Below, one piece after another: positions 11,674 through 61,800 of a stretch of 64,000 bases of DNA. Source of the DNA: an uncultured Bacteroidia bacterium (lineage in GTDB: Bacteria > Bacteroidota > Bacteroidia > Bacteroidales > UBA932); the NCBI GenBank assembly GCA_902779765.1, contig CACZCQ010000001.1, forward strand, positions 186,001-250,000, given 5' to 3'. Position 1 is the stretch's first letter; every line of letters starts with the position of its first letter. Made by a program: the position numbers and the translations under genes. The notes beneath the pieces were generated by a model that had not been told where the DNA came from, searched no databases, and worked only from the letters and a program-made list of their open reading frames with translations.

Positions 11674-12573
11674 ATGAACTGGCTGCAAGCTCTCCTTCTC
11701 GGCCTGATCCAGGGCCTTACCGAGTTCCTGCCCGTCAGTTCCAGCGGTCACCTCATGATAGTAAGGGAACTTCTCGGCGTGGATGCTGAAGGTTTCCTCG
11801 ATTTCACGGTCACGGTCCATCTGGCTACGGTCCTCAGCACCATAATAGTATTCTGGAAACCGATCTGCAGGCTTTTCGCCGGTCTGTTCAAGTTCAAGTA
11901 CAACGACGAGACCGACTATGTCTTCAAGCTCATCGTCTCCATGGTTCCCGTGGCTATCGTCGGTTTCCTCTTCAAGGACAAGGTCGAGGCGCTGTTCGGT
12001 GATTCTCTCACGACCGTCGCCGTCTGCCTCCTCATCACCGCCACCCTGCTTCTGCTTTCTGACTTCTTCGGGAAGGGGCAGGTCGGAAGGGGTTCCCCCT
12101 TTGCGACCATTTACCCGGTTAGGGAGCGAAGCGCAGGGAGAAAAGGGGGAACCCCTTCCGACCTTTCGGCCGATGTTCCGGAGGTTCGGAACGGTATCAA
12201 TTTCTGGCAGGCTTTCGTGGTCGGAATCGGCCAGGCGCTGGCTGTCGCCCCGGGGCTTTCCCGTTCCGGCACCACCATTGCGACCGGTCTGCTTTGCGGA
12301 GTGAAACGCAATGTGATGGCGCAGTTCTCGTTCCTTATGGTCCTTGTGCCAATCCTCGGTGAGCAGTTCCTGGATATCCTCAAGGCCGTGTCGGGCGAAG
12401 TCTCCCTTGGAGGAGACCTGAGCCCCGTCTGCCTTGCCGCCGGATTCGTGGCGGCATTCCTCGCGGGCCTCTTCGCCTGCAAGGCGATGGTGGCGCTCGT
12501 CAGGAAGGCAAAGCTCGGATGGTTCGCCCTCTACTGCCTCGTCGTGGCCGTCCTGATATTCATTCTTGCATAG
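11674..12573 (+). CDS. uppP: Undecaprenyl-diphosphatase with an in-frame palindromic insert
   Basis: Dephosphorylates undecaprenyl pyrophosphate to regenerate the lipid carrier for peptidoglycan and O-antigen synthesis; a polytopic inner-membrane enzyme. Family motifs are present: GLTEFLPVSSSGH (residues 14-26) and PGLSRSGTT. At 299 residues it is about 30 longer than usual. The excess is a hydrophilic stretch at about residues 137-173 (VGRGSPF...ERSAGRKGGTPSDL...), encoded by DNA with 23-bp perfect inverted repeats, between two membrane segments. The frame is open throughout, and both motifs flank the insert intact, so the enzyme is probably functional with an extra loop. Confidence 0.95.
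   Translation: MNWLQALLLGLIQGLTEFLPVSSSGHLMIVRELLGVDAEGFLDFTVTVHLATVLSTIIVFWKPICRLFAGLFKFKYNDETDYVFKLIVSMVPVAIVGFLFKDKVEALFGDSLTTVAVCLLITATLLLLSDFFGKGQVGRGSPFATIYPVRERSAGRKGGTPSDLSADVPEVRNGINFWQAFVVGIGQALAVAPGLSRSGTTIATGLLCGVKRNVMAQFSFLMVLVPILGEQFLDILKAVSGEVSLGGDLSPVCLAAGFVAAFLAGLFACKAMVALVRKAKLGWFALYCLVVAVLIFILA
12080..12192 (+). repeat. Palindromic element inserted in frame in uppP
   Basis: Perfect 23-bp inverted repeats at 12080-12102 and 12142-12164 flank a 39-base loop containing GGAGCGAAGCG and GCAGGGAG. A second smaller hairpin follows (GTTCCG 12175-12180 with CGGAAC 12187-12192). The right arm encodes KGGTPSDL. The loop core and encoded motif recur in the purL insert. Confidence 0.85.
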
Positions 12574-12576
12574 GAT

Positions 12577-13335
12577 ATGGCAGAAAGGACCCTGGTATAT
12601 TTCGTTTCCGATGTCCATCTCGGCCTGGATGTGAACGATCCAGCCGCGAGGGAGAAGCGGTTCGTCCGGTTCCTCCGGAGTATCCCTGCCGAGCGGACCC
12701 TGACTCTTTATTTGCTGGGGGACATCTGGGATTTCTGGTATGAGTACAGGGATCTCGTCCCGAAGGGATACGTCCGGGTGTTCTCCGTCCTTATGGACCT
12801 GATGGACGCCGGTGTGAAGGTCTGTTTCTTCCAGGGCAACCACGACATCTGGTGCTATCATTATTTCAAGGACATGGGGATCGAGATCCTTGAGCAGCCT
12901 TACCTTGTGGAACTGGGCGGCAAGGTCTTCTGCCTGGGTCACGGAGACGGCCTCGGACCGGGGGATTATTCCTACAAGGCCATGCGCTGGGCTTTCCACA
13001 ACAAGACCTTGCAGAAACTGTTCAGTTCGCTGCTCCACCCGACCCTGGCTTTCAAGATCGGCAAGGGATGGTCACGCAAGAGCCGTCTTGCGAGGAACGA
13101 GGAATATCATTTCAGGGGACAGGAAGAGCCGTTGTACAAGTTCGCGGCCAAGTTCGCCCGGAAGCACAAGGTCGATTATTTCATCTTCGGGCATTTCCAT
13201 ACGAAAGTGGACATGCCGTTGCCGGGAGGGGCCAGGCTGATCGTTCTCAGGGACTGGGTGCAGTCTCAGTCCTCGAACGCGATGGTCTTCGACTTGACCT
13301 CCGGATGCTTCGGCATTTCCCAGAATATCGAATAG
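12577..13335 (+). CDS. LpxH-like UDP-2,3-diacylglucosamine diphosphatase (metallophosphoesterase)
   Basis: Predicted calcineurin-like phosphoesterase that cleaves UDP-2,3-diacylglucosamine to lipid X in lipid A synthesis; Bacteroidota LpxH homologues look like this. The 252-residue protein shows all five metal-site blocks: SDVHLG (about 10-15), GDIWDFW (47-53), GNHD (88-91), GHGDGLG (about 124-130) and GHFHTK (about 206-211). It starts 3 bp after uppP and completes the envelope operon. Its last 70 bases overlap the convergent DUF4294 gene on the other strand. Another phosphodiester substrate cannot be excluded. Confidence 0.88.
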   Translation: MAERTLVYFVSDVHLGLDVNDPAAREKRFVRFLRSIPAERTLTLYLLGDIWDFWYEYRDLVPKGYVRVFSVLMDLMDAGVKVCFFQGNHDIWCYHYFKDMGIEILEQPYLVELGGKVFCLGHGDGLGPGDYSYKAMRWAFHNKTLQKLFSSLLHPTLAFKIGKGWSRKSRLARNEEYHFRGQEEPLYKFAAKFARKHKVDYFIFGHFHTKVDMPLPGGARLIVLRDWVQSQSSNAMVFDLTSGCFGISQNIE

Positions 13336-13970
13336 TACAGGGCGTCGAATTCGCCCCGTTTCCATTTCTCGACCAGGTATTCAGTCATCTTGTCGTCGCC
13401 GTTGGCGTCGTAGCGGCTCTTCAGGTCGTTGCCGAATATCTTGGCCACGCCCTGCCAGAAGCCTGCGGTGATCCCGCTCTTGTAGTCCTTGATGATCTTG
13501 AATGAGGATTTCCCGATCTCGCGGTCGATCAGCTTGATAAGGAGACGGCCCTGGGATATGCTCATCTTCTTCAAAGGCTCTTCATAGATGTTGAAGAGTT
13601 CCTTCTGCATTTGGTTGATGTATTTCTCCTTCTTCCTGCGCCGCAGGGAGTTCCCGGCGATATGGTCGTCCACCTGCTTGGTCAGGTCCCTGGCGAGGAG
13701 GGCGTAGGGATATACCTTGTTGAAATTGTAGACGAGTCGGTAATATTTCTTAAGGTCTCCGTTACCCCTTCGCCCGCGCGGGAATATCCAGATGGGATTG
13801 ATGCTGTCGTAATAGACGGTATCGCCCTTCTCGACACGGTATCCCATGTATCCCGCGCCGGTCCTTCCGGTGACCTGGGGCATGCCTTCCTCCTCCTGGG
13901 CGGCGGCATTCGTCGTCAGGAGTCCGGCCAGCAGGCACAGGGCGGATATTATCAGATACCGATGTTTCAT
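13266..13970 (-). CDS. DUF4294 family secreted protein
   Basis: 234 residues with a signal peptide (residues 1-23, ending NAAAQ). The conserved DUF4294 core runs from GDTVYYDSINPIWIFP to the end, with FNKVYPYALLARDL and a basic RRRKKEKYINQ stretch. Function unknown; the family is restricted to Bacteroidota. A longer frame continues to 14171, but a -7 box at 13993-14000 (minus strand) and the signal peptide at ATG 13970 set the start. The last 70 bp overlap the 3' end of the LpxH-like gene. Confidence 0.88.
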   Translation of the reverse strand: MKHRYLIISALCLLAGLLTTNAAAQEEEGMPQVTGRTGAGYMGYRVEKGDTVYYDSINPIWIFPRGRRGNGDLKKYYRLVYNFNKVYPYALLARDLTKQVDDHIAGNSLRRRKKEKYINQMQKELFNIYEEPLKKMSISQGRLLIKLIDREIGKSSFKIIKDYKSGITAGFWQGVAKIFGNDLKSRYDANGDDKMTEYLVEKWKRGEFDALYYSIFWEMPKHPEVKSKTIAFED

Positions 13971-14277
13971 ATACAACTCGCGAACGAGGTCGCAAATGTA
14001 CGAATTTGCTGAAAAATTCGTGCCTGAAAGATAAGTCTTATGAGTGGATGTCGAAACCGAGGGGTAAAAATTTCTTATCCTAAGCTTAAATGCTTGAAAA
14101 TAATGTATTTCACTTGTCGGAACCGTGGTCGAAAATGTTGAAATATTTTTCGAATAATGTTTGAAATCCACATTTTTTTGCTAACTTTGCAGTCCCAAAT
14201 TCCAGGGATTATAGACTTAAATAGTTGATAATCAGCGATTTGGAAAGTTTGGATATTTTATTTAAAGTAATACAGCA
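13971..14277. other. Intergenic region with divergent promoters and the rplP leader
   Basis: No gene is visible. It holds the minus-strand -7 box TACATTTG (13993-14000) for the DUF4294 gene and the strong ribosomal promoter at 14160-14189. About 85 AT-rich leader bases follow before rplP; I see no convincing long hairpin in them. Confidence 0.7.
14160..14189 (+). promoter_or_regulatory. Promoter of the rplP-rplQ ribosomal operon
   Basis: TTTG at 14160-14163, an 18-base spacer and TAACTTTG at 14182-14189 closely match the Bacteroidota consensus. It shows that rplP is the first gene of its transcript here. Confidence 0.8.
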
Positions 14278-14697
14278 ATGTTACAACCAAAGAAAACCAA
14301 GTACAGAAGGGAACAGAAGAACGTGATGAAGGGTAATGCCCAGAGGGGCAACCAGCTCGCGTTCGGTTCTTTCGGTCTCAAGACCCTCGAGAACTGCTGG
14401 ATCACAGCCCAGCAGATCGAGTCCGCCCGTCAGGCTATCTCACGTCGCATGAACCGTGAAGGACAGGTCTGGATCAGGATATTCCCTGTCAAGCCCTTCA
14501 CCAAGAAGCCTCTTGATACCCGTATGGGTAAGGGTAAGGGTGATCCCCAGGGTTTTGTCGCTCCCGTGACCCCCGGCCGTATCCTTTTCGAGGCTGACGG
14601 AGTTTCCCTCGCCACCGCGAAAGAGGCGATGCGCCTTGCGTCCCACAAGCTCCCTATCGCGACCAAGTTCGTCGTCCGCAGGGATTATGTTGAATAA
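14278..14697 (+). CDS. rplP: 50S ribosomal protein L16
   Basis: 139 residues, full length, starting [14 protein letters not shown] and keeping the family signature [17 protein letters not shown]. It binds 23S rRNA near the peptidyl-transferase centre. It is normally preceded by rpsC; here it directly follows a promoter and an unrelated divergent gene, so the S10-type genes must lie elsewhere. Confidence 0.98.
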
Positions 14698-14717
14698 TTT
14701 AATGGAGAAGAAAGGAT

Positions 14718-14915
14718 ATGAAAACATCTGAAGTTCGCGAAATGTCCATTGCAGACCTGCAGGACCGCATCCAGGTAGAAAGGAACAGGCTTGACACAAT
14801 GAAGCTCAACCATGCCATCTCTCCATTGGAGAACACATCGGAATTCAAGAAGATCAGGAAGGATATCGCTCGCATGATCACTATCCTCGCTGAAAAAGAA
14901 AAAGATCAGAAATAA
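14718..14915 (+). CDS. rpmC: 50S ribosomal protein L29
   Basis: 65-residue helical hairpin protein of normal size (MKTSEVREMSIADLQDRIQ, ending IRKDIARMITILAEKE). It sits beside the polypeptide exit tunnel and forms part of the signal recognition particle and trigger factor docking site. It follows rplP by 20 bp in the standard order. Confidence 0.97.
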   Translation: MKTSEVREMSIADLQDRIQVERNRLDTMKLNHAISPLENTSEFKKIRKDIARMITILAEKEKDQK

Positions 14916-14922
14916 TTAAGCC

Positions 14923-15177
14923 ATGGAAAGAAACCTTCGTAAGGAAAGAACAGGCATAGTGGTCAGCAACAAGATGGACAAGACCATCGTGGTTGCGGTC
15001 GAGACCAAGAAGATGCACCCTCTCTACGGAAAGTTCATCAAGCAGACGACCAAGTTCGTCGCCCAGGACGAGAAAAACGAGTGCAGTGAGGGAGATACCG
15101 TCCGCATCATGGAGACCCGTCCTCTGAGCAAGACCAAGAGGTGGAGATTAGTTGAAATCGTTGAAAAAGTTAAGTAA
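14923..15177 (+). CDS. rpsQ: 30S ribosomal protein S17
   Basis: 84 residues with the OB-fold family pattern [17 protein letters not shown] and [17 protein letters not shown]. It is a primary 16S rRNA binder of the small-subunit body. It lies 7 bp after rpmC. Confidence 0.98.
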
Positions 15178-15179
15178 TT

Positions 15180-15545
15180 ATGATACAGCAGGAAACACGT
15201 TTACAGGTTGCCGACAACAGCGGTGCTAAGGAGGTCCTTTGCATCCGTGTGCTTGGCGGTACCCATCATAGGTATGCGACAGTGGGTGACCAGATCGTGG
15301 TTGCGATCAAGAGCGCCATTCCCAGCGGCGACGCCAAGAAGGGCACGGTCTCCAAGGCTGTCGTAGTACGCACCAAGAAGGAAATCCGCAGGCAGGACGG
15401 ATCCTACATCCGTTTCGATGACAACGCCTGTGTCCTTCTGAACAACGCCGGCGAGCTCCGCGGAACACGTATCTTCGGCCCTGTGGCCAGGGAGCTGCGT
15501 GAGAATTACATGAAGATTGTTTCACTGGCACCTGAGGTCCTTTAA
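15180..15545 (+). CDS. rplN: 50S ribosomal protein L14
   Basis: 121 residues; starts [18 protein letters not shown] and ends [16 protein letters not shown] as in the family. It contributes to the subunit interface (bridge contacts) and to the ribosomal silencing factor site. It starts 2 bp after rpsQ. Confidence 0.98.
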
Positions 15546-15557
15546 TATCAGAGAATC

Positions 15558-15875
15558 ATGAAGAAGTTACATATAAAGAAAGGTGACACAGTGTATGTCA
15601 ACGCGGGAAACGACAAGGGAAAGACCGGAAAGGTCCTGACCGTCATCCCTGCGAAGGATAGGGTGATCGTTGAAGGCGTCAACGTCATCAGCAAGCACAC
15701 CAAGCCGAATGCAGCCCACCCTCAGGGAGGTATCATCAAGCAGGAAGCCGGAATCCACGTATCGAACGTCCAGCTCATCGACCCTGTCAGTAACAAGCCT
15801 ACCAGGGTTGGTTACAAGGTCGTCGACGGCAAGAAGATCCGCTACGCTAAGAAATCAGGAGAGGAGATCAAGTAA
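15558..15875 (+). CDS. rplX: 50S ribosomal protein L24
   Basis: 105 residues with the KOW motif near the start ([22 protein letters not shown]). It initiates large-subunit assembly and lines the exit tunnel rim. Standard position after rplN. Confidence 0.98.
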
Positions 15876-15877
15876 TC

Positions 15878-16477
15878 ATGGCAAAGAAAGCAGCAAAACC
15901 CGTAGAAGTCCAGGAACTTCCGAAGGATTATGTACCTTCACTCAAGAAGGTCTATAAAGAAGAGATCGTAGAGAAGCTCATGAAGCAGTTCTCCTATACG
16001 ACTGTAATGCAGGTTCCCAAGCTCGTGAAGATCACGATCAACGAGGGAATCGGTGACGCCACCCAGGACAAGAAGCTCGTCGAAGAGGCAGCTGAAGAGC
16101 TCGCCAAGATCGTCGGTCAGAAGGCTGTCCTCACTTCTTCCAGGAAGGACGTTTCCAACTTCCGTCTCCGTAAGGGCATGCCCATCGGTGTGAAGGTCAC
16201 CCTCCGTGACGTCAAGATGTACGAGTTCCTCGAGAGGCTCGTCCGCATCTCCCTTCCCCGAATCAGGGACTTCAACGGCATCGCCGAGAAGATGGACGGT
16301 AAGGGCAACTACACCCTTGGACTGAAGGAGCAGATCATCTTCCCCGAGGTCGACATCGACAAGAACCCCAGGATCCATGGTATGGAGATCACTTTCGTTA
16401 CCACGGCCAAGACAGACGAAGAGGCTCACGCCCTTCTCGCCGCCTTCGGTCTTCCTTTCAAGAAACATAACAACTAA
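15878..16477 (+). CDS. rplE: 50S ribosomal protein L5
   Basis: 199 residues, about 15 longer than typical homologues because of an N-terminal extension ([18 protein letters not shown]) before the conserved core that begins [17 protein letters not shown]. Core motifs ([51 protein letters not shown]) are intact. It binds 5S rRNA in the central protuberance. Starts 2 bp after rplX. Confidence 0.97.
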
Positions 16478-16482
16478 GGAAT

Positions 16483-16752
16483 ATGGCAAAGGAATCAATG
16501 AAAGCCCGCGAAGTAAAGCGCGCGAAGCTGGTAGCCAAGTATGCTGAAAAGAGGCAGGCCCTCAAGGAAGCAGGCGACTGGGCAGCTCTCGACAAGCTCC
16601 CCAAGAACTCTTCTCCCGTCCGTCTGCACAACCGCTGCTCCCTCACCGGTCGTCCGAAGGGATACATGAGGAAGTTCGGTCTCAGCAGGATCCAGTTCCG
16701 TGAGATGGCCAGCAACGGCCTCATCCCGGGTGTGAAGAAGGCAAGCTGGTAA
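16483..16752 (+). CDS. rpsN: 30S ribosomal protein S14 (zinc-independent form)
   Basis: 89 residues, the longer form without the CxxC zinc ribbon; the conserved block reads [23 protein letters not shown]. It belongs to the small-subunit head. An 82-bp gap, unusually long for this operon, follows before rpsH. Confidence 0.97.
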
Positions 16753-16834
16753 TAGAGCAAGCATATACATCTTATTATATTAACAATCGGATATCGGGCG
16801 TCCAACGGGCGTCGAACCAAAAACAAAAGAAACA

Positions 16835-17230
16835 ATGACTGATCCAATTGCAGATTTTCTCACCAGGATCCGCAACGCTTATCTGGCAGGAAAGAAGGTC
16901 GTAGAGATCCCGTCCTCCAAGATGAAGGTTGCAATGACAGAGATTCTTTGTGAGAAGGGTTACATCCTCAGCTACAAGGTGGTCGAGGGAACCCCGTACA
17001 ACACTATCAAGATCGCTCTGAAGTACCATCCTCAGACCAAGATGGCCGCCATCAAGAAGATCGAGCGTATCTCCACCCCGGGCCTCAGGGTCTACGCTGA
17101 TGTGGAGAATATGCCCAGGGTCCTCAATGGTCTCGGCATCGCGATCCTTTCCACGTCCAAGGGCATCATCACTGACAAGGAGGCCAAGAGTCTCAACGTC
17201 GGCGGCGAAGTTCTCTGCTATGTTTATTAA
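16835..17230 (+). CDS. rpsH: 30S ribosomal protein S8
   Basis: 131 residues starting MTDPIADFLTRIRNA and ending GGEVLCYVY, as expected. It binds helix 21 of 16S rRNA; in E. coli S8 also represses the spc operon by binding the mRNA. The 82-bp upstream gap contains a repeated GGGCGTC (two copies, four bases apart), but I could not recognise an S8-binding helix there. Confidence 0.98.
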   Translation: MTDPIADFLTRIRNAYLAGKKVVEIPSSKMKVAMTEILCEKGYILSYKVVEGTPYNTIKIALKYHPQTKMAAIKKIERISTPGLRVYADVENMPRVLNGLGIAILSTSKGIITDKEAKSLNVGGEVLCYVY

Positions 17231-17248
17231 TATTAAAAGTTAAGAATA

Positions 17249-37414: not shown

Positions 37415-38419
37415 TTACACGTTTGTCCAGTGAATCTTGAAACCGTCCTTCTCCATTCCGCGGAACCAGGTCATCTGCCTCTTTGCGAACTGGTGGATGG
37501 CGTTTCCCAGCAGCAGGCGCATCTCGTCGTAGGAGAGGATGCCCAGCACGTGCTGGGTCACGAACTTGTATTCAAGGCCGTAGTACATCAGGTCCTCTGG
37601 CCTTATCCCGCTGTCCAGCAAGCCTTTGACTTCCTCGATGAGGCCGCCTTGAAGCCTGGCGTCCAGCCTTGCGTCTATCCTGGCGTTCCTTTCCTCCCTG
37701 CTGACCAGGGTGCCGATGCAATAGGGTTTCTTAGGCATGAAGGAACTGTCCTTGACAGGATGGTCGCGCTTGTAAAGGGCAACTTCCAGGGCCCTTATCA
37801 CTCGGCGCTTGCTCTGCATCACGCCTTCGTCCGGAAGGGGACCGAGTTCCGCCAGCTTCTCCCGGAGCTCCTCGATGTCGAACTGTTCCAGTTCGGCACG
37901 GAGTCCTTCATCCGGCGGGACCTGCGGCAATGAATATCCGCTCGTGGCAGCCTGGATATAGAGGCCGGTGCCGCCGCAGAGGATAGGGATGCTGCCGCGT
38001 GAGCGGATGTCCCTGTAGGCTTCCTCGAAGGCCTGCTGCCATTGGTACAGGTCGAACCTCGTCCCGGCCGGGACTATGTCGATGAGGTGATATGGGACGT
38101 CGCCGTACTCCTCAAGGTCCTTCCCGGTTCCGATGTCCATTCCCCTGTAGACCTGCCTGCTGTCCGCGGATATTATCTCCGCTATGATGCCAGAGGGGAC
38201 ACCTCCCTCTGTCGTGAGGGTGGAAAAAATCCTGGCCAGGTCGACGGCGTAGCGGGTTTTGCCGGAGGCGGTGGGGCCGAGGACGACGACCAGGTCGATG
38301 GCGCCGGAAACATATTCATTGAAGACGGAGGCGACATCTATCGTCTCCGGGTCCGGCAGTGGAGCCGGCGGAGGGATGGGAATAGCTTCCCGAAGCCTGT
38401 TCTGACGGTTCCTTCCCAT
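37415..38419 (-). CDS. miaA: tRNA dimethylallyltransferase with N-terminal extension and palindromic insert
   Basis: Adds dimethylallyl to A37 of tRNAs reading UNN codons. P-loop GPTASGKT and the substrate motif ISADSRQVYRGMDIGTGKD are present. Two departures from normal: a roughly 40-residue proline-rich N-terminal extension (IPIPPPAPLPDPETID) before the P-loop, and about 15 extra residues (TLTTEGGVPSGII) between the P-loop helix and the ISADSRQ strand, encoded by a perfect 7-bp-arm hairpin. ATG 38419 follows the smpB stop by one base; an in-frame GTG at 38428 is an alternative. Confidence 0.94.
   Translation of the reverse strand: MGRNRQNRLREAIPIPPPAPLPDPETIDVASVFNEYVSGAIDLVVVLGPTASGKTRYAVDLARIFSTLTTEGGVPSGIIAEIISADSRQVYRGMDIGTGKDLEEYGDVPYHLIDIVPAGTRFDLYQWQQAFEEAYRDIRSRGSIPILCGGTGLYIQAATSGYSLPQVPPDEGLRAELEQFDIEELREKLAELGPLPDEGVMQSKRRVIRALEVALYKRDHPVKDSSFMPKKPYCIGTLVSREERNARIDARLDARLQGGLIEEVKGLLDSGIRPEDLMYYGLEYKFVTQHVLGILSYDEMRLLLGNAIHQFAKRQMTWFRGMEKDGFKIHWTNV
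38191..38211 (-). repeat. Short palindromic insert in miaA
   Basis: CAGAGGG (38191-38197) and CCCTCTG (38205-38211) with a 7-base loop. On the coding strand it encodes TEGGVPSG, matching the frame and composition of the motif KGGTPS in the uppP insert and RGTPL in the purL insert. Confidence 0.65.
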
Positions 38420-42048: not shown

Positions 42049-43302
42049 CTACCCCTGTATTCCGAAAGCTTTCCGGATATCTTCCACGGAGTCGAGTTTT
42101 TCCCAGCCGAAGAACTGTACTTCCTTCTCGTAGGGCTGGTCGCCACGGTACAGGGTGACTTTCCTGACAAAGGGGTCGCGTCCGAAATGGCCGTAGGTGG
42201 CGGTAGGGGAGTAGATGGGGTTCTTGAGTCCGAAACGGCGGATGATAGCTGCAGGACGCAGGTCGAACAACTGGCCGATCCTGAAGGCGATTTCGGCGTC
42301 CGGAATCAGGCCGGTACCCCAGGTGTTTACGAATATGCTGACGGGTCTGGCTACACCTATGGCATAGGCCAGCTGTACCATCATCCTGTCAGCCACTCCT
42401 GCTGCAACCATATTCTTGGCGATATACCTGGCAGCATAGGCCGCGCTGCGGTCGACCTTGGAAGGATCCTTCCCGGAGAAAGCTCCGCCGCCATGGGCTG
42501 AATGGCCTCCGTAGGTGTCCACGATAATCTTCCTTCCGGTCAGGCCGGTATCTCCGGCAGGGCCGCCGATCACGAATTTCCCGGTAGGGTTGACGTGCAG
42601 GATGAAATCTCCTTTGAAGAGCGAGGCTGTGGCCGGGTCGAGCTGGGCTTTTACCTTGGGCAGCAGGATGTTGCGTACATCGTTCTCTATCCTGGAGTGC
42701 ATCGCTTCATCGGTGTCGAATTCGTCGTGCTGGGTGGAGAGGACTATCGTATGGATGCGCAGGGGTTTCCCGTCTTCTGAATATTCGATCGTGTACTGAG
42801 ACTTGGAATCAGGCCTGAGATACGGCATCAGTTCAGGTTCCTTGTGACGGATCTGCGCAAGGGTCCAGAGGGTGAGGTGCGAAAGATAGAGTGCTAGCGG
42901 CATGTAGCTTTCGGTATCCTTGCAGGCGAAACCGAACATCATGCCCTGGTCGCCGGCACCCTGCTCATCGGGATCTTCCCGGGAGACGCCGCGGTTGATG
43001 TCCTGGCTCTGCTCGTGGATCTCGGAAAGGACTCCGCACGAATTGGCGTCGAACATATACTCGGCCTTGTTGTAACCGATACGGCTGATTACGTCGCGGA
43101 CAGTACCCTGGATGTCGACATAAGCATCAGTGCGGACCTCGCCGCCTACTATCACCAGACCGGTGGAACAGAAAGTCTCGCAAGCGACCTTGGATTCGGG
43201 GTCGCGGCGGAGGAATTCGTCGAGGATAGCGTCTGAAATCTGGTCGGCCACCTTATCAGGATGGCCCTCGGAGACTGACTCCGAAGTAAAAAGATAATTC
43301 AT
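42049..43302 (-). CDS. metK: S-adenosylmethionine synthase
   Basis: 417 residues; makes SAM from methionine and ATP. The N-terminus [21 protein letters not shown] and the motifs [12 protein letters not shown] and [19 protein letters not shown] are diagnostic. A frame continues to 43413, but the promoter and a predicted riboswitch lie inside it, so ATG 43302 is the start. Expression is probably repressed by SAM through the SAM-II-like element ending at the start codon. Confidence 0.98.
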
Positions 43303-43357
43303 TTCTTTAGCATTTTTTTGACCGGGGTTGCAAGCGGTGCAAATCCTTCCCCGGAAG
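43303..43357 (-). promoter_or_regulatory. Probable SAM-II riboswitch in the metK leader
   Basis: The minus-strand leader folds with stem CCGGGG (43354-43349) and CCCCGG (43327-43322). The loop holds GATTTGCACCGCTTGCA, and the 3' tail, A-rich then TGCTAAAG, runs into the ATG. SAM-II aptamers have the same layout: a stem, an ATTT...CCG...TTGCA loop and a conserved GCTAAA tail that pairs back to form a pseudoknot masking the ribosome site. UUUGCA in the loop can pair with UGC(U)AAA in the tail. The location before metK fits. Confidence 0.7.
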
Positions 43358-43367
43358 TTTAGCGTTG

Positions 43368-46814: not shown

Positions 46815-49046
46815 ATGAAAGCTAAATATATCTTTACTTCCCTGATTGCCGCTCTCGGTCTCCTTATGACCGCTTGCGTGGAGGAGGCCGACCACTTCCT
46901 TGATGAGGTCCAGGTTTCATCCTCATACGTTACATTCTCCGCCGGCGGCGGCTCCGTTCCCGTGGAATTGACGGCAACAGGCTCATGGACGGTTTCCAAC
47001 CTCCCCTCCTGGGTTACCGTCAGTCCTTCTACCGGTGGTGCCGGAAAGACCACCGTTACTTTCACAGCCCCCGCTGCCGATGATACACGTGAGGCTACCG
47101 CTACGATCGAGTGCGGAGGCAAGACACAGAATATCAATCTCCTTCAGGTAACCCAGAAATCCGAGCCCGTCACGATGACGGTCAAGCAGGCCCTTGAGGT
47201 TATCGCTCCGCTCGCTGACCAGGAAGTGGCCGGCGGAACCTACCGTGTGAAGGGTATAGTCTGCAAGATAGATGATCTGAGCAAGCAGTATGGCAACGCT
47301 ACTTACTACCTGTCAGATGACGGTTCGTTCACCGCTGGTTCCTGGCTTGAGGTCTATCGTGGCCTTTGGCTCAACGGTGCGGCTATCACGACCGGTGACG
47401 AGTTCTCGGTAGGTGATGAACTCACTATCGAAGGTTCCCTCATGAACTACAAGGGAACTCCCGAGACCAAGGAGAAGACCGCTATCGTCGTTGCTTTCAA
47501 AAAGTCCCTTATCAGCGTCGATGCTTTGGATTTCGATAAGCTTCCTTGCATTGACACGACTTTCAACCTTGTGGTTACCGCAAAGGAAAGCCCGCTTCTT
47601 GTGACCTGCGATGCCGATTGGCTCCAGATTACCGACGTGAACAAGGACGGGAGCTATAAACTCCATGCGGATGAGAACACCCGCACAGCCGAGCGTAAGG
47701 CTGCGATCACCATCAAGGGCCCCACAGCTCTCAAGACTATCGAGATTACCCAGGCCGGTACTCCTGCGACCGGTATGTCCGTGACCGAGATCATAGCTGC
47801 TGCAGACAAGGATAAGGTCCAGACCCTGCCTTCAACCGTGGTAGTGGCCCTTACGACCAGGGGAGCAGTCCTTTCCGATGGAGAGAACTGCATCTACGCC
47901 TACGGCGACAAGGCTGCCGCCCTGAAGGTTGGTGACGGAGTCAAGTTGTCCGCTACCAAGACTACCTACTACGGAGTTCCCGAACTTACATTCTCAGACA
48001 CCGATGAGGTATTCGTCGACAGCGAAGGCAATGCCGTTGTCCATCCTGAAGCTACCGACATTACTGCGAAGGCTGCAGAGTATTCCTCGGCCGTTGCTGA
48101 ATATGTCAAGCTGTCCGGAGTCCTTAAAGTTTCCGGTAACTACTATAACATGGAGATCGACGGAATCGATCCCGAGGTTCTCCAGGGTAGCATCAATTAC
48201 CCTGTGGATGCGCTCGACGCAAAGAGCTTCGACGGAAAGAAGATCACCGTGACCGGCTACTTCAACGGAACCAACGTCAACAAGAATACTGGTGTCAAGT
48301 ATGTCAATGTGATCGCCACCAAGATTGCCGAGTTCGTCGATAACCCCAAGGGAACCCTCAAGAACCCGTACGAGGCCACTGAACTTGCTGAACTCCTCAA
48401 GTCCGGCACAGTCCCCGAGGGTAATGTCTATGCCCGTGGTATCATCAACAAGATCGACAATGTCAGCACCCAGTATGGTAATGCCCAGTATTGGCTCTCT
48501 ACTGACGGTTCCGCTGCCGATCTTGAGGTTTACCGTGGCTTCTATTATGGTGGAGAAAAGTTTACTGAAGAGACTGCCGAGGCCATCAAGGTCGGTGACG
48601 AAGTCGTGGTTTACGGTAAGGTTAAGGTTTATGGTGAAACCCCTGAGTTTGATGCCAACAATTATCTGGTGACTATCAATGGCAAGGCTGCTCCTTCCGG
48701 AAGCGGTACTGCCGAGGATCCTTACAACATCACCAAGCTTGCAGACTTGCTCCTCTCCGGCGAGACCGTCGAGGGTGAAGTCTATGCCAAGGGTATCATC
48801 TCCCAGATTGACAATGTCAGCATCCAGTACGGAAATGCCCAGTACTGGCTTTCCGATGACGGAAGCAAGAAGTATCAGCTTGAGGTTTACCGCGGCTTAT
48901 GGTTCGGTGGTGCCAAGTTCACCTCCGAGGACCAGATAGCACTTGGTGACGAGGTCGTCGTCTGTGGAAAGGTGAAAGTTTACAACGGAACACCGGAGTT
49001 CGACGCCAACAACAAGATCATCTCCCTGAACGGAAAGACCGAATAG
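46815..49046 (+). CDS. BACON/OB-fold repeat lipoprotein
   Basis: 743 residues with a lipoprotein signal (Cys21 in LLMTACVEE). Domains in order: a BACON-like beta-sandwich (about 30-115), an OB-fold repeat (KQYGNATYYLSDDGS...LEVYRGLWLNG), a second BACON-like segment, a divergent OB fold (about 325-500), then two near-identical OB-fold repeats (QYGNAQYWLS...LEVYRG...GTPEFDANN). The repeats resemble DUF5689-type OB modules often found near secreted nucleases and TonB receptors. It is co-transcribed with the receptor and ends at a strong terminator. It probably captures ligand at the surface. Confidence 0.82.
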   Translation: MKAKYIFTSLIAALGLLMTACVEEADHFLDEVQVSSSYVTFSAGGGSVPVELTATGSWTVSNLPSWVTVSPSTGGAGKTTVTFTAPAADDTREATATIECGGKTQNINLLQVTQKSEPVTMTVKQALEVIAPLADQEVAGGTYRVKGIVCKIDDLSKQYGNATYYLSDDGSFTAGSWLEVYRGLWLNGAAITTGDEFSVGDELTIEGSLMNYKGTPETKEKTAIVVAFKKSLISVDALDFDKLPCIDTTFNLVVTAKESPLLVTCDADWLQITDVNKDGSYKLHADENTRTAERKAAITIKGPTALKTIEITQAGTPATGMSVTEIIAAADKDKVQTLPSTVVVALTTRGAVLSDGENCIYAYGDKAAALKVGDGVKLSATKTTYYGVPELTFSDTDEVFVDSEGNAVVHPEATDITAKAAEYSSAVAEYVKLSGVLKVSGNYYNMEIDGIDPEVLQGSINYPVDALDAKSFDGKKITVTGYFNGTNVNKNTGVKYVNVIATKIAEFVDNPKGTLKNPYEATELAELLKSGTVPEGNVYARGIINKIDNVSTQYGNAQYWLSTDGSAADLEVYRGFYYGGEKFTEETAEAIKVGDEVVVYGKVKVYGETPEFDANNYLVTINGKAAPSGSGTAEDPYNITKLADLLLSGETVEGEVYAKGIISQIDNVSIQYGNAQYWLSDDGSKKYQLEVYRGLWFGGAKFTSEDQIALGDEVVVCGKVKVYNGTPEFDANNKIISLNGKTE
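47277..49043 (+). repeat. Three internal OB-fold repeats in the lipoprotein gene
   Basis: Protein repeats beginning near 47265, 48450 and 48810 share K/QIDxxSxQYGNAxYxLSxDGS and LEVYRG. The last two are much closer to each other, suggesting a recent duplication within the gene. Confidence 0.8.
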
Positions 49047-55323: not shown

Positions 55324-56287
55324 TGTAGTCGGAAAGGGCTTGGTAGAATGCCTGGATGTTCACGACAGGGGTGCGGGGCGGTACGTCGCATCCGGTCGAT
55401 AGGATGAAATTGCCGAAACCTGCCGTCTTGCCAAGAAGCTCGGATACAGCGGCATATACCTGTTCGGGAGAAGCCTGCTGCATAACGGTCACGGGATCGA
55501 TGTTTCCCATCACCGGAAGCTCCGGCGGGCAGGTTTTCAGGGCTTCCACCATATCCGCACGGTTGCCGAAATGGAGTGCCGAGGCTCCGGAACGGATCAT
55601 GGCGTCGGTACAGTGCCCGGTGTTGCCGCAGTTGTGCAGCACGATAGAGAAACCGTCATCCTGGACCGCATCGACGATTCTCCTGACATAGACCGATGAG
55701 TACAGGTAGCAGTCGTCGTTGGAAACGAGTCCGGAGGCCGGTTCGGCGAGTATCACTCCGTCGATTCCGGTCCCTTTCATCGCAAGCAGGTAGGAAGTGA
55801 TGAAAGCCGTACACTTCTCAAGGAGCATCGTGACAGTCTCCGGTTCGATGTACATCGCCATCATCAGCTCCGAGAGGTCGAAAAGCCTGCCGGCCAGGGA
55901 AAATGGACCTATGCAGCCGCCGAAAACCTTCTTGTCCTTGATACGTGAAGCTACGATCCGGTTGGCCTTGAGATACTCGGGTATCCTTCCCTTGTCCAGC
56001 GAGGGGACTTCAAGTCCGGCCACCGATCCTGCATCATGGACAAGCCTTCCGAGAATGCTCGGAATCTCATTCTCTGAGAACCTTATCTGTGCGCCGAAAG
56101 CCTCTGCTTCAACAGTCAGGTCCATGATAGCGGTAACTGCATCGGCCGGGAACCGGTCGTTGAGAGCGCATATGGCGTCTGCGTGTGCCTGCCCGTCTGT
56201 CACCGCCTTCAGGACCGTACTTCCGCAAAGCTCGATCCCCGGATGAGTCATGATGGGGATGGCTAGGCGTTTCTTCTTTTGAAGCAT
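55310..56287 (-). CDS. UroD-family corrinoid methyltransferase (MtaA/CmuA-like)
   Basis: 325 residues of the uroporphyrinogen-decarboxylase superfamily, in the subset that moves methyl groups to or from corrinoid proteins. Zinc-ligand pattern HNC (LHNCGNTGHC) with a distal cysteine in LSTGCDVPP matches MtaA-type enzymes rather than true HemE. ATG 56287 gives the family start (MLQKKKRLAIPIMTHPG). It overlaps the reactivation-protein gene by 25 bp. It is likely the second methyltransferase, passing the methyl from the corrinoid to an acceptor, perhaps tetrahydrofolate. Confidence 0.85.
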   Translation of the reverse strand: MLQKKKRLAIPIMTHPGIELCGSTVLKAVTDGQAHADAICALNDRFPADAVTAIMDLTVEAEAFGAQIRFSENEIPSILGRLVHDAGSVAGLEVPSLDKGRIPEYLKANRIVASRIKDKKVFGGCIGPFSLAGRLFDLSELMMAMYIEPETVTMLLEKCTAFITSYLLAMKGTGIDGVILAEPASGLVSNDDCYLYSSVYVRRIVDAVQDDGFSIVLHNCGNTGHCTDAMIRSGASALHFGNRADMVEALKTCPPELPVMGNIDPVTVMQQASPEQVYAAVSELLGKTAGFGNFILSTGCDVPPRTPVVNIQAFYQALSDYNEKD

Positions 56288-56925
56288 TTCGTGTTCTTGC
56301 AGATTTGACAATGATATGGCTGCCGCTGCAGGGTTTCCCCAAGTGCGAAGAAGCCGCTGACGGATTTTTCCGGTGTCATAAGGGAAGACTCCGAAAGGAT
56401 GATGCCGCAAGGGCGCTCCGGGAACAGGGAAAAGAGGATGTGCTGTTCACGTATGTCCCAGTTGCAGTAGCCAGGGCTGTAAGGCATGGAGATGGTCTCT
56501 TTCCCTACGTAGTCCTGTTCAATCCTGGCCACGGTCATTTCGGCCAGGACCGAACCTATGGAGTCGGCGATGAAATCGGCCACGATGTCGTCTTTGGCTT
56601 TGAGGGCTTCTTTCGCCCTGTCGAACTCCCATCCGGCCGATCCGATGAATAGAAGCGCGTGGGTCATCCCTTGAAGGTATGAACAGATGATTCCTTCAGG
56701 GGTGAAGGTCTTGCCGGCCATGCGCACCTGCCTGGGCGAAAGCTTTTCTGCCTCGACCACCTGGTAGATGTACCGCAGGGTAGCCTTTGGCACGAGTTCG
56801 CAGATAAGTTCACGGACCATCCCCCGTATCCGTTCTTCCGGTACGGAATCCTTATAACCCATCGCGAACCACACTTCTTTTTCGGGCAGTTCCTCAGGGC
56901 TTATCTGGAAAGCCCTCTCGACCAT
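56263..56925 (-). CDS. MetH-like activation domain protein (corrinoid reactivation)
   Basis: 220 residues homologous to the B12-dependent methionine synthase activation domain, standing alone. Key segments: YSPGYCNWDIREQHILFSL (SAM-binding region) and LMTPEKSVSGFFALG, and a C-terminal cysteine cluster (CQICKNTKC). In MetH this domain binds SAM and reductively remethylates oxidised cobalamin. It starts one base from the corrinoid protein's stop and so probably reactivates that protein. Confidence 0.87.
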   Translation of the reverse strand: MVERAFQISPEELPEKEVWFAMGYKDSVPEERIRGMVRELICELVPKATLRYIYQVVEAEKLSPRQVRMAGKTFTPEGIICSYLQGMTHALLFIGSAGWEFDRAKEALKAKDDIVADFIADSIGSVLAEMTVARIEQDYVGKETISMPYSPGYCNWDIREQHILFSLFPERPCGIILSESSLMTPEKSVSGFFALGETLQRQPYHCQICKNTKCFKRRNA

Positions 56926-57542
56926 CAGGAAAGAAGTTTTTTGGCGACCTGGACAGCTTCGTTTGCATTGGAACTGTAGCCGTCGGCCCCGATCGAGGCC
57001 GCGAATTCCGCATTCAGAGGGGCTCCGCCGACCATGACCTTGATATCCAGTCCGTCGGCCCGTACCGCTTCGACTACTTCCTTCATGTAGTCCATCGTGG
57101 TGGTCAGGAGGGCTGACAGGCAGATTATGTCGGCATTGTTCTCCTTGGCCGCCTCGATGAAGCGCTCCTTGGATACGTCGGTTCCCAAGTTGATCACCTT
57201 GAAACCACGGCCCTCGAGCATGGATGCGACCAGATTCTTGCCGATGTCATGAAGGTCTCCCTTGACTGTTCCGATCACCACCGTACCCAAAGTCGTAGTC
57301 TGTCCCGCTATCATAAGCGGTTTCAGGATATCCAGGGCGGATTTCATGGCCCTCGCACTGAGCAGGAGGTTCGGTACGAACACCCTGCCTGCCTCGAATT
57401 CCTGTCCGATCGCCTCCATCGCAGGAATCATCGACTCGTCGATGATGTCCTGGGGAGTCTTGCCGTTGTCGAGTGATTCCTGGACAGCGGTTTTTGCCAA
57501 GGGTGCAAGTCCCTTGAAAATGGCTTGGTACAGATTATCCAT
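56925..57542 (-). CDS. Corrinoid (cobalamin-binding) methyl-carrier protein
   Basis: 205 residues: N-terminal helical cap domain (about 1-85) and a Rossmann-like B12-binding domain with the base-off ligand motif DLHDIGKNLV (about 115-124), then LGTDVSKERF and VGGAPLNAEFAASIGADGY. This is the MtaC/MtbC/MtgC-type methyl carrier. Two UroD-type genes and a reactivation gene flank it. Confidence 0.95.
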   Translation of the reverse strand: MDNLYQAIFKGLAPLAKTAVQESLDNGKTPQDIIDESMIPAMEAIGQEFEAGRVFVPNLLLSARAMKSALDILKPLMIAGQTTTLGTVVIGTVKGDLHDIGKNLVASMLEGRGFKVINLGTDVSKERFIEAAKENNADIICLSALLTTTMDYMKEVVEAVRADGLDIKVMVGGAPLNAEFAASIGADGYSSNANEAVQVAKKLLS

Positions 57543-57543
57543 A

Positions 57544-58803
57544 TTATGAACGAATTTCTTTCAATGTGTCCATCAGGGCGATTACGTTCTCCACGGGGAC
57601 GTTCGCCTGGATGTTGTGGACGGTATTGTAGACGAATCCACCGTCTTTCCCGAATATGTCGCAGAGCCTGAGGACTTCCTCGCGGACTTGTGCGGGCGTT
57701 CCGAAGGGGAGTGTCTTCTGGGTGTCCACACCGCCGCCCCAGAATGTGACCCGGTCCCCGAATTCATCCTTGAGCCTTTGCGGGTCCATGTCCTTAGCCG
57801 CGATTTGGACAGGGTTGATGATGTCGAACCCGGCGTCGATCAGGCTGTCAAGCAAGGGATATATGGCACCGCAGCAGTGCTTGAAAGTCTTCCACTGGGT
57901 GTGCTGGTGGATCCAGTCGTTCATCCTCTTGTAGTATGGGACATACAGTTCGTTGAGGGTTTCCACCGACATGAACTGGCTTGTCTGGGTGCCGAAATCT
58001 GCACCGCACACATAGACGACATCCACATTCTCCCCGACGACCGAATGGATTTTCTCAAGATTCCTGACAGCCAGAGCCGAGATCCGGTCGAACAGCTCCT
58101 TGATGTAGTCGGGACGGCAGACTGTCGACATATACCATTCAGCGACGCTGCGGATGCCGCGCGGCTCGCGGATGGCCGGCGAGATGATGCGGGCGACATC
58201 GCCCAGGGCCATCCCTCCGAATCCAGCCACCACGGCACGCCCTGTACTGGCTGCCCGGTCGGTAACCGTCTTCCAATAGGCGAGGGTTTCGTCGTCGATG
58301 TCTCCATATTCCTGGAGATTGTCCTCCACGTTGAGGTTGTCGTCGTCTATCTCGCCCTGCTGGCGTTCGATCGAATCGAAGAAATAGCAACGCTCCGGCA
58401 TATGCCCGGACGGCGGCAGTGAACGGTCTCCTTCCGGATAGGTGTAGAGTCCGCCGTCTTTCTCCGTGAAAGAATCGACCATCTTGGCGGGCAGCATCAC
58501 CACCTGACCCCAAGGCATCCTGTATTCCTTCCAGTCCTTGTTCCAGACTCCGATTGAATTCTTGGGCGCAAAGCATCCGGCGGTATCCGTCCCGAGCGCT
58601 TCGGCTAGATCGTCTTCTATGTAACCGAGCATCTGACCGGGTTCGTGGACATAGACGGGATGGTCATCCAGGCCGTAGTGCCTGCGAAGAGCCTCCACGA
58701 CCTTGCAATGGATTCCGGTGACCGGCGTGGTGCCGAAGTCCACCGCCAGCCTGTCCGCGTTCCTGTGCTCCAGTACGGTCCTGATCCTCTCTTTCCCGGT
58801 CAT
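57544..58803 (-). CDS. UroD-family methyltransferase, probable substrate demethylase (MT1)
   Basis: 419 residues, longer than MtaA-type enzymes, in the UroD superfamily. The zinc-site block reads FKHCCGAIYPLL and a distal FVYNTVHNIQANVP carries histidine in place of the usual cysteine. Its coding start overlaps the purL stop (ATGA), and the corrinoid protein follows immediately. As the divergent partner of the set it is the best candidate for the enzyme that removes a methyl group from the growth substrate (methoxy compound, methylamine, betaine or methylated acid; not determinable). Confidence 0.82.
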   Translation of the reverse strand: MTGKERIRTVLEHRNADRLAVDFGTTPVTGIHCKVVEALRRHYGLDDHPVYVHEPGQMLGYIEDDLAEALGTDTAGCFAPKNSIGVWNKDWKEYRMPWGQVVMLPAKMVDSFTEKDGGLYTYPEGDRSLPPSGHMPERCYFFDSIERQQGEIDDDNLNVEDNLQEYGDIDDETLAYWKTVTDRAASTGRAVVAGFGGMALGDVARIISPAIREPRGIRSVAEWYMSTVCRPDYIKELFDRISALAVRNLEKIHSVVGENVDVVYVCGADFGTQTSQFMSVETLNELYVPYYKRMNDWIHQHTQWKTFKHCCGAIYPLLDSLIDAGFDIINPVQIAAKDMDPQRLKDEFGDRVTFWGGGVDTQKTLPFGTPAQVREEVLRLCDIFGKDGGFVYNTVHNIQANVPVENVIALMDTLKEIRS

Positions 58804-61800
58804 GACTGTTTCTTGAAATACCTTACCGCATTATCGAAGAGCGGCTGCTCGAGATCTGCCTCTATGTTCTTGAACAGGCCATCCTCGAAGCGTTCGCTGT
58901 GCCCCATCTTGCCCAGGATCTGGCCGTCCTTGCTGATAATTCCCTCGATGGCGTAATATGACCCGTTGGGATTGTAAGGAGACTCCATGGTAGGTTCGTC
59001 CGTGATAGGATCCACATACTGGAAAGCCACCTGGCCGTTGGCGAAGAGTTCACGGGCGAGTTCCTCGTTCACGACGAACTTGCCTTCACCGTGGCTCACG
59101 GCTATCGTGTGCTCGTCTCCGACGGACATTCCGCGCAGCCAGGGGGAATTGGTGGTCGAAACCCTCGTGGTAACCATCTGGGAGATGTGCCTGTTGATGT
59201 CGTTGCGGAAGAGTGTGGGGGAATCCTTGGTGACCTTGCCCAATTCGCCATAGGGCAGCAGACCCGACTTGACCAGGGCCTGGAAACCGTTGCAAATACC
59301 AAGGATCAGACCTCCCCTGGAGAGCAATCCCTCGATTGCTGAGGCTATCTTTCCGTTGTTCAGCACGTTGGCTATGAACTTGCCGCTTCCGTCAGGCTCG
59401 TCTCCGGCGGAGAACCCACCGGCGAGCATCAGTATCTGGCACTCGTCGATATTCCCCTTCATCTCGTCGATGGAATCGAACACATCCTTGTCTGACAGAT
59501 TGCGGAATACGCTCGTGCGTACCTCCGCCCCTGCCTTCCTGAAGGCCTTTGCGGAGTCATAGTCGCAGTTCGTGCCCGGGAATACGGGAATATACGCAAT
59601 GACCTTGTCCACCGCCGGTCCCTTGTATTCGAGGTCGGCCTTCCTGGCCTTATATGGCTTGACCCCTTCAAGGCCGCGGGGCAGAAGTCTATTGTTGGCA
59701 GGTTCGCTGACGGCGGGATAGACCTTCTCGAAGAGGGAACCGTTGAAGTCCATCAGTTCGAATATCGAGACGGAGGTCCCGTTCACCCGGACGTTGCCGT
59801 CTTCTCCGGAGGTCACTTCGCCCAGGAGTACTGCGTTGTCGAAATCGACCTCACCGTCGGTTTCTATGACTATCGAACCGTAGGAAAGATTGAAGAGGTC
59901 TTCCTCATCGATCCTGACATCGAACCCGAAGGCATTGCCGAAACTCATCTTGCAGAGGGCTTCAGCCACGCCGCCGAATCCGACTGCCCAAGCGGCCACG
60001 ATGGTTCCGTCCTCGATTCTGGCATGGATGTTATTCCAGTTTTTCTTGAGCTGCTCTACATTCGGCATACGGTTCTCGAGCGGAGTGTGCCTGACCAGAT
60101 ACAGCCTGTCTCCTTCCCATTTGAATTCGGGTGAAATCACGTTGTCCACCTTCACGGGGGTGATTCCGAAGGCGATAAGTGTCGGAGGAACGTGGATCGG
60201 ACCATGTTCGGTTTCGAAAGATCCGCTCATCGAATCCTTTCCGCCGATGGACGGCAGGCCGAAGGCTTCCTGCATCTTGAGGGCGCCTAGAAGCGCTGCC
60301 GCGGGCTTGCCCCAGGTATGGAAGTCCGAAGTCATCCTCTCGAAGTACTCCTGGCAGGAGAAGCGCATCGTGCGCCAGTCTCCTCCGGCGGCGACAACCT
60401 TGCTGCAGGCCTCGACGAATGAATATGCGGCACCATGGTACGGACTCCACTCGCACATGTCGGGATTGAAACCGAAAGCCATCATGCTGGCGGTGCCGGT
60501 GAATCCGTCGACAGGGAGTTTCTGGACGGAGACCTGTGTTTCGGTGGTCTGGAGTTCTCCTCCGAACGGCATGAGGACCGTCGAGCGGCCGATGGTCGAA
60601 TCGAACATCTCGATCAGACCTTTCTGGCTGGTTACGTTGGGATCCTGGAGATTGGCGAACATCTTCTCCTTCAGGTCCTTCCCGGGGATATCCCTGTAGA
60701 AGGGATCGGTCCCGTCCACGGATCCGATGACCGCCTTCGAATAGTGCTTCGCTCCGGCGCTGTCGATGAAGTCGCGCCTGAGGTCGACTACCAGCTTCCC
60801 TCCGTTGTACATACGCATCCTTTCGGTGTCGGTGACGTCCGCGACGTGTGTGACCTCGATATTCTCGGAGTGGCAATATTCCTTGAAGAGTTCCTCGTCC
60901 TTGGCTTCGATGACCACGGACATCCTCTCCTGTGATTCGCTGATCGCCAGTTCGGTGGAATTCATTCCGCTGTACTTCACAGGCACCCTGTCAAGATAGA
61001 TGTCCAGTCCTGCCGTGAGTTCGCCGATGGCGACGCTCACTCCGCCGGCTCCGAAGTCATTCGATTTCTTTATAAGTTTAGTGACCTCGGGCCTTCTGAA
61101 CAGTCTTTCAAGCTTCCTTTCCTCCGGAGGATTACCCTTCTGGACTTCGCTTCCGCATGTTTCAAGGGATTCCTCCGTATGCTCCTTTGACGACCCTGTC
61201 GCACCGCCGATACCGTCGCGGCCGGTCCGTCCGCCGAGCATCAGCACCACATCTCCGGGCTTCGGGCTCTCACGCCTTACGTGGTCCGCCTTGACCGCAC
61301 CCACTACAGCTCCGACCTCCATCCTCTTGGCCGTATAGCCTTCGTGGAATATCTCGCGGACATGGGTTGTCGCAAGACCTATCTGGTTGCCGTAACTTGA
61401 ATAACCCTGTGCCGCCTTCCTGGTGATGACCTTCTGCGGGAGCTTCCCGGGAATGGTCTGGGAAACGGGTTTGTAGATGTCTCCTGCACCGGTAACGCGC
61501 ATTGCCTGATAGACATAGGAACGTCCGGAAAGGGGATCCCTTATGGCTCCGCCCAGGCAGGTCGCCGCTCCTCCGAAAGGTTCGATCTCGGTAGGGTGGT
61601 TGTGGGTCTCGTTCTTGAACATCAGGAGCCAACGTTCCGTTGTCTCCTGATGTTCATCCACCCCCCTGCACCCCCCGGGGGGATTGAGGGGCGTTCCCCT
61701 CAAACTCCCTGCGTCGCTTCGCTCCGAGTCGCCAGAAACGAAGGGAGTGACATCGACGTCGATGAATATGCTGCAGGCGTTGTTCTCCTCGCTGACCTCC

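What the first reader, a model, noticed from the sequence alone, without database searches (positions are those of the whole stretch)
12080..61750. Three inserts define one candidate family of protein-coding palindromic elements
In three unrelated conserved genes the inserted DNA is purine-rich, self-complementary and read in the same frame, giving G-(G)-T/V-P-S/L. Uniform frame use across sites suggests selection for an orientation and phase that lacks stop codons, which is the hallmark of elements adapted to live inside genes. This could be an undescribed mobile or expanding repeat system; the mobilising activity would be elsewhere in the genome.
Basis: inference. Interest (0 to 1): 0.85.

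Follow-up and report, generated by a model that had tools for sequence, protein, structure and literature searches.

The report
Flipping hairpin inserts inside bacterial genes
Short hairpin-forming DNA pieces are scattered through conserved genes of rumen bacteria, read through as extra protein sequence, and differ between relatives in presence and direction, which matters as a little-known way that genes may gain new coding sequence.

Summary
The uppP insert is real and belongs to a dispersed family (A): a 36-base core in the loop of a hairpin with arms of about 23 bases. Arms differ from copy to copy yet stay paired. In 151 genomes of the genus, 8 carry the core at up to 3 mismatches (3 copies in the window's genome, 19 and 21 in two others). 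Of 147 copies gathered, 112 lie in long open frames, spread over five frames, so the "uniform frame" claim fails. At 18 of 31 sites shared between species the core occurs in both directions. Some sites are empty in near relatives. The three inserts are not shown to be one family: purL carries a REP-like family (B) whose end is an inverted copy of native purL codons, and the miaA insert looks like the scar of a third hairpin, larger in the nearest relative. Best explanation, partly inferred: mobile hairpin elements whose arms and orientation are remade by template switching during replication. The mobiliser is unknown; none of 12 Y1 transposase loci inspected carries the core. I class it as a new variant of protein-coding palindromic elements, known from Rickettsia.

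The parts
11674..12573 (+). uppP (BacA) gene that carries insert 1 in frame
   Evidence: Pfam BacA match at aa 6-294 of 299
12080..12102 (+). left arm of the family A hairpin
   Evidence: perfect 23-base inverted repeat; DNA fold z -7.5
12105..12140 (+). conserved 36-base core of family A in the hairpin loop
   Evidence: two further copies in the genome, 8 of 151 genus genomes
12142..12164 (+). right arm of the family A hairpin
   Evidence: complement of 12080-12102
61638..61739 (-). insert 2 in purL (family B, REP-like) including its inverted-copy end
   Evidence: 12 of 14 orthologues compared lack it, G089 has it; body pattern in 7 of 18 genomes
61638..61656 (-). inverted copy (18 of 19 bases) of native purL codons at the 3' end of insert 2
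   Evidence: complement of 61616-61634; absent in the 12 empty orthologues
61616..61634 (-). native purL codons (within ERWLLMFKN) that serve as the other arm
   Evidence: the protein stretch is conserved in the 14 orthologues compared
38190..38211 (-). insert 3 in miaA: palindromic scar, likely remnant of a family D hairpin
   Evidence: G143 has similar arms around about 95 more bases; related inserts in G041 and G071, another in G017

Best explanation
The uppP insert is one copy of a mobile hairpin element of about 82 bases (family A). Shown: a conserved 36-base core sits at the tip of a stem of about 23 bp whose sequence differs between copies but stays paired; copies lie within conserved genes and also between genes; shared sites often carry the core in opposite directions; near relatives can be empty at a site or hold a different element. 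Inferred: the hairpin is copied to new sites as a folded single strand, or by a polymerase jumping template at short homology, and template switching between the two arms then (a) rewrites one arm to match the other, (b) flips the spacer, and (c) sometimes copies host flank into the opposite arm. The insert is tolerated in genes because the common core leaves four of six frames open, five in some variants. Insert 2 and the relatives of insert 3 are other hairpin families with similar behaviour. The source of mobility is unknown.
For: Dispersal. Arms: 50 of 53 copies score at or above the 99th percentile of 2756 mismatched pairs. Pairing in 94 arm-distinct copies: Watson-Crick in 0.50-0.83 at stem positions -2 to -18, above all 200 shuffles at 16 of 17 positions (not at -7), shuffled means 0.27-0.61; core pair 3/33 is C-G 49, G-C 24. 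Stable folds in three copies, z -6.6 to -7.8. In genes: 112 of 147; 16 of 16 host ORFs that I chose among family A sites have a Pfam match over cut-off, including methionyl-tRNA synthetase, a PP-loop (TilS-like) protein and NAD synthase. Flips: 44 of 120 orthologous pairs, 18 of 31 site clusters; in 36 of 44 flipped pairs both copies are in long ORFs. Flip between the same outer arms: L034/L265; between nearly the same arms: L042/L045, L023/L025. Turnover: G151 lacks the element at 5 of 20 queried G089 sites. Inverted copies of native sequence: purL, and miaA of G071 against empty G089; in purL the copied arm follows synonymous differences between G000 and G089. For family A, L046 against L222 is a likely case and L067 against L229 a possible one. 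Template switching homogenises arms and inverts spacers in yeast genes (PMC8604942, abstract).
Against: Arm length is tight (median 23 each; element 71-120 bases, n = 124), which open-ended copying does not predict. For family A, a copied host flank was seen at 2 of 22 loci compared and neither is clean: at L046 the copy is imperfect (a 2-base bulge), and at L067 the supposed native arm is missing in G152 (L263), so it may be a leftover arm. At other loci, for example L042/L254 and L003/L239-L240, neither arm is in the empty site. Some opposite-direction pairs may be independent insertions at a hotspot: at uppP, G089 and G151 hold different core subtypes at 93% flank identity. Orthologous stem differences include more single pair-breaking cells (623) than double pair-keeping ones (290) over 158 non-independent pairs. 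No mobilising gene was linked. Copies were gathered by core patterns, so core invariance is partly imposed.
Confidence: 0.5

Rival explanations
1. A dedicated enzyme (a Y1/RAYT-type transposase or another recombinase) moves the whole hairpin as single-stranded DNA, and a site-specific invertase or the same enzyme flips the core. Arms vary because recognition is by structure.
For: Y1_Tnp matches in 14 of 14 genomes with the core that were tested (and in 11 of 16 without it by the pattern). Tight arm length and a structured core suit recognition by shape. No excess of flanking direct repeats: 8 of 124 copies with 5 or more bases against 9.7% in shuffled pairs, as expected of Y1 elements (recalled).
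Against: None of 12 Y1 loci inspected carries the core within the fetched flank; only 6 of the 12 lie in genomes that have the core, so this is a weak test. The gene is also common in genomes without the core. It does not by itself explain arms that copy native sequence.
Confidence: 0.28
2. The hairpin is a functional RNA or DNA structure kept by selection at each site (for example for mRNA stability or pausing), so arms covary by compensatory selection.
For: Strong pairing and covariation and stable RNA folds.
Against: Copies are in unrelated genes, on either strand, in five frames and between genes, sites are empty in relatives, and no Rfam family fits.
Confidence: 0.09
3. Old, immobile insertions whose loops are kept alike by gene conversion between copies while arms drift.
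For: Many sites are shared across species at 72-97% flank identity, and cores are alike despite different arms.
Against: Copy number ranges from 0 to about 20 between genus members and relatives are empty at some sites; arms stay paired, which drift alone does not give.
Confidence: 0.1
4. Assembly or library artefact.
For: The titled records that I saw with the core are draft MAGs or uncultured-bacterium assemblies (80 of 117 rows shown).
Against: The same sites recur in separately assembled series (RUG, RGIG, RUI), and reading frames stay open across the inserts.
Confidence: 0.02

Closest known systems
Rickettsia palindromic elements (RPE) and other protein-coding palindromes
   Same: palindromic inserts in frame in ORFs that likely encode functional proteins (PMC3733652, passages)
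   Different: here the loop core is conserved while arms vary and covary, and the core flips; sequence kinship with RPE not tested
CGTC- and GTAG-tagged REPs (PMC3733652, passages)
   Same: short hairpin repeats, some intragenic, CGTC type reported in Bacteroidetes and Chlorobi
   Different: REP stems are 5-13 bp with loops of 2-20 bases and a terminal tag; family A has stems of about 23 bp and a 36-base loop core without that tag
Repeat units RU-1 to RU-3 of enterobacteria, also found intragenically (PMC2759123, title and start of abstract in a search listing)
   Same: small mobile sequences within genes
   Different: units of 103-168 bp; variable paired arms are not mentioned in what I saw
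Template switching at inverted repeats (PMC8604942 abstract; PMC8794818 start of abstract in a listing)
   Same: arm homogenisation and spacer inversion in coding DNA
   Different: a mutational process at existing repeats, not a dispersed repeat family
Invertons (PMC11892184, start of abstract in a listing)
   Same: segment between inverted repeats found in both directions
   Different: flips here were seen between species, not within a population; spacer of about 40 bases inside reading frames

Membership tests
Protein-coding palindromic elements of the RPE kind | palindromic insert read through in frame in otherwise conserved genes | tested here: met
   112 of 147 copies in long ORFs; 16 of 16 chosen host ORFs with a Pfam match
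Protein-coding palindromic elements of the RPE kind | sequence homology to a named RPE family | not tested
   no RPE sequence was fetched or compared
CGTC/GTAG REP | short stem with small loop and unpaired CGTC or GTAG tag at one end | tested here: not met
   family A: arms median 23 bases, loop core 36 bases, core starts mostly GAC/GAG/GGA; criteria from PMC3733652 passages
GTAG REP with RAYT gene (REPtron) | Y1 transposase gene flanked by the element | tested here: inconclusive
   0 of 12 inspected Y1 loci carry the family A core; 12 of 70 Y1 places inspected, only 6 of them in genomes with the core
MITE | conserved terminal inverted repeats | tested here: not met
   arms differ between copies with the same core
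MITE | target-site duplication | tested here: not met
   no excess of direct repeats outside arms, 8 of 124 against 9.7% control
Inverton | spacer between inverted repeats found in both orientations | tested here: met
   18 of 31 shared sites across species; some may be independent insertions
Inverton | both orientations within one strain, with an invertase | not testable with these tools
   needs reads or culture
Known structured RNA | match to an Rfam family | tested here: not met
   17 loci at E up to 5: the only match over its gathering score is a tmRNA beside a family B copy (L020); weak sub-threshold hits otherwise; in the window only a SAM-II riboswitch elsewhere

The most novel reading that the evidence does not exclude
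A class of mobile element defined by its loop alone: the core enters a target at short homology, the growing strand folds back and copies the host's own flank as the second arm, so each insertion builds a target-specific hairpin. In genes it then works as an invertible peptide cassette, and several hairpin families (A, B, D) share this mode.
Probability: 0.2. Interest if true: 0.87.

Novelty: new variant of a known kind. Interest (0 to 1): 0.7.

Why it matters
If right, short hairpins add and rewrite coding sequence in conserved genes (a tRNA synthetase, NAD synthase, purL, uppP) of gut bacteria, and paired changes usually read as selection for RNA structure can arise here by mutation alone. 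It offers many natural replicates, since the same sites are empty, filled, flipped or re-armed in related species, for measuring template switching in bacteria.

Tried and rejected
Rejected or not borne out: one family for all three inserts; one frame; a known Rfam RNA; phage carriage (no exact match of one pattern in viral contigs) and plasmid carriage (no match of the uppP insert); target-site duplication. A RAYT gene flanked by the core was not found at 12 of 70 Y1 places, a weak test. A GAGCGAAGCGA motif as shared key of all families: forward plus reverse against reversed control, G089 73/13, G041 82/34, G071 52/16, G151 37/19, G096 25/5, G145 24/12, G000 11/10, G066 11/5, G043 6/2, G013 3/2, so it is not enriched in the window's own genome. 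The stem rows used a register off by one; one search replaces them, while the core rows stand. L111 and L143 (Chlorobi titles) and L118 (Oscillospiraceae title) have no arms and are likely not this element; L111 and L118 are still among the 147, as are tandem and truncated copies. One search treated the first 80 of the 117 loci: 71 of 88 matches scored above 24 for arms. Literature: seven searches listed no report that I recognised as this element; the library lacks most subscription papers.

Full report
What was checked. The window is part of a 2.48 Mb, 31-contig genome. Of 117 contig stretches with the core pattern, the 80 rows shown are nearly all Bacteroidales/Bacteroidia assemblies, some with ruminant-stomach labels. 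The finding names inserts in uppP, miaA and purL; Pfam confirms all three hosts.

Insert 1. In uppP, 23-base arms (12080-12102 and 12142-12164) enclose a core at 12105-12140. BLAST of 141 bases found two more copies of the core in the genome, one in a serine-dehydratase-like gene (L003, 464-aa ORF) and one outside a long ORF (L002, longest ORF 92 aa). At both, the core is again enclosed by inverted repeats, of other sequence. A 36-base pattern with up to 3 mismatches hit 8 of 151 genus genomes: G000 3, G020 1, G041 1, G048 4, G071 3, G089 19, G092 2, G145 21; the reversed pattern hit none. These 54 places give 53 distinct loci (one near-identical pair merged); 50 of 53 have arms scoring 24 or more, 24 being the 99th percentile of 2756 mismatched left-right pairs.

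Anatomy. With all loci pooled there are 147 copies (up to 2 substitutions in the pattern, 60 bases of flank needed; tandem, truncated and two doubtful records not removed). In 94 copies distinct by their arms, pairs between position -i and 35+i are Watson-Crick in 0.50-0.83 of copies from -2 to -18, above all 200 shuffles at 16 of 17 positions (not at -7); shuffled means are 0.27-0.61, and most positions use several pair types. Inside the core, pair 3/33 swaps C-G (49) for G-C (24), 0.80 paired against at most 0.55 in shuffles; 2/34 and 1/35 are mostly A.G and G.A (74 and 83 of 94). Three copies fold into the long stem with small inner hairpins, z -6.6 to -7.5 as DNA and -7.1 to -7.8 as RNA. 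Arms have a median of 23 bases, the whole element 82 (71-120), n = 124; no excess of direct repeats flanks it. Core conservation is partly imposed by pattern-based collection; arm pairing is not.

In genes, any open frame. 112 of 147 copies meet a strict ORF rule (at least 200 aa, 30 aa each side, 1.5 times the next frame); random positions on the same loci meet it in 1868 of 2696. Frames: +1 23, +2 20, +0 12, -1 22, -2 35, -0 none. I chose 16 family A host ORFs, uppP included, for Pfam; all 16 have a match above cut-off, and in some the core lies inside the matched stretch (L056, L068, L070, uppP).

Comparison between species. At the uppP loop, 30 loci (of 147 genomes with a match) show no insert, family A, or other inserts, some also palindromic (L084, L088). 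Among 120 pairs of copies at orthologous positions (both with arms, different loci), 76 have the core in the same direction and 44 the opposite; by site, 18 of 31 clusters hold both directions, with consistent assignment; 2 of 11 pairs at 90% flank identity or more are opposite. L034 and L265 share outer arms with the inner part inverted; L042/L045 and L023/L025 have nearly the same arms and opposite cores. Some opposite pairs can be independent events: at uppP, G089 and G151 carry different core subtypes at 93% flank identity. G151 lacks the element at 5 of 20 queried G089 sites (L042, L176, L044, L069, and L067, where it has a plain hairpin); at four sites read it is filled (L068, L070, L034, and uppP with another subtype); the rest were judged only from match gaps or not seen.

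Where the arms come from. 22 family A loci were set against orthologous stretches (17, 5 more). At L046 the outer right arm looks like an inverted copy, with a 2-base bulge, of left flank present in empty G145. At L067 the right arm also occurs, unpaired, in G145, and the left arm is its inverted copy; but G152 (L263) lacks that stretch, so it may itself be a leftover arm. In others neither arm is in the empty site (for example L042/L254, L003/L239-L240). Better evidence comes from the other families. In purL, the end of the family B insert is an inverted copy (18 of 19 bases) of native codons within ERWLLMFKN; 12 of 14 orthologues compared lack it. G000 and G089 share the insert, their native codons differ synonymously, and the copied arm differs to match. 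In miaA, G071 has an inverted copy of a left flank that G089 holds once, at a site of the same length as in G092, G082 and G020. These are the signs expected of template switching, which in yeast genes homogenises arms and inverts spacers (PMC8604942, abstract read). Against this, orthologous stem differences over 158 pairs (tandem neighbours included, pairs not independent) include more single pair-breaking cells (623) than double pair-keeping ones (290), and arm length is tight.

Inserts 2 and 3. The family B body has 11 exact-pattern copies in G000 and occurs in 7 of 18 genomes searched. It shares GGAGCGAAGCG and CAGGGAG with the uppP core, so a distant tie is open. The miaA insert is a 22-base palindrome; G143 has similar arms around about 95 more bases (family D), related inserts lie in G041 and, reversed, in G071; G017 has another; the other eight of 13 loci compared have a short native stretch. 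It is best read as a scar.

Mobiliser. Y1_Tnp (PF01797) matches occur in 25 of 30 genomes: 14 of 14 with the core and 11 of 16 without it by the pattern. Of 70 places, 12 loci were inspected, 6 of them in genomes with the core; none carries the core, one carries family B. No link is shown or excluded.

Comparison with the known. It works like the palindromic elements of Rickettsia, described as in frame in ORFs in PMC3733652 (passages read; the original papers are recalled, not read). Family A fails the tests for tagged REPs and for MITEs listed in the membership table. Seven literature searches listed no description that I recognised as this element. I therefore call it a new variant of a known kind.

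Noticed in passing
43297-43358 (-): SAM-II riboswitch at the start of the S-adenosylmethionine synthetase-like ORF.
   Followed up: no
48361-48508 and 48715-48862: 148-base direct repeat, 72% identical, inside one long ORF.
   Followed up: no
7980-9617 (-): ORF with a long GGYGGYGGY run towards its C-terminus.
   Followed up: no
L246, L252, L067 left flank, L088: Another palindromic repeat (AGATTCTTCGCTTCGCTCAGAATGACA type, resembling a TGTC-tagged REP) sits at or beside the same landing sites.
   Followed up: partly
L306, L307, L308, L309 (miaA of G143, G041, G071, G017): Large hairpin inserts at one miaA site, with different arms and one reversed core.
   Followed up: partly
L113 from 389, L117 from 6564, L149 from 4965; L115 from 1635 and L216 from 1379 counted on the reverse strand: Tandem half-copies of family A, left arm plus core repeated head to tail.
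   Followed up: no
L229 and L263: Core sits in the loop of what is a plain terminator-like hairpin in G151, G154 and G156 (L259, L262, L271).
   Followed up: partly
L279 about 316-360: Family B hairpin within about 1.2 kb of a Y1 transposase match.
   Followed up: no
L016 around 1500-1650: A second in-frame family B copy in an RND-type transporter gene of the same genome, also ending in a hairpin; no relatives compared.
   Followed up: no
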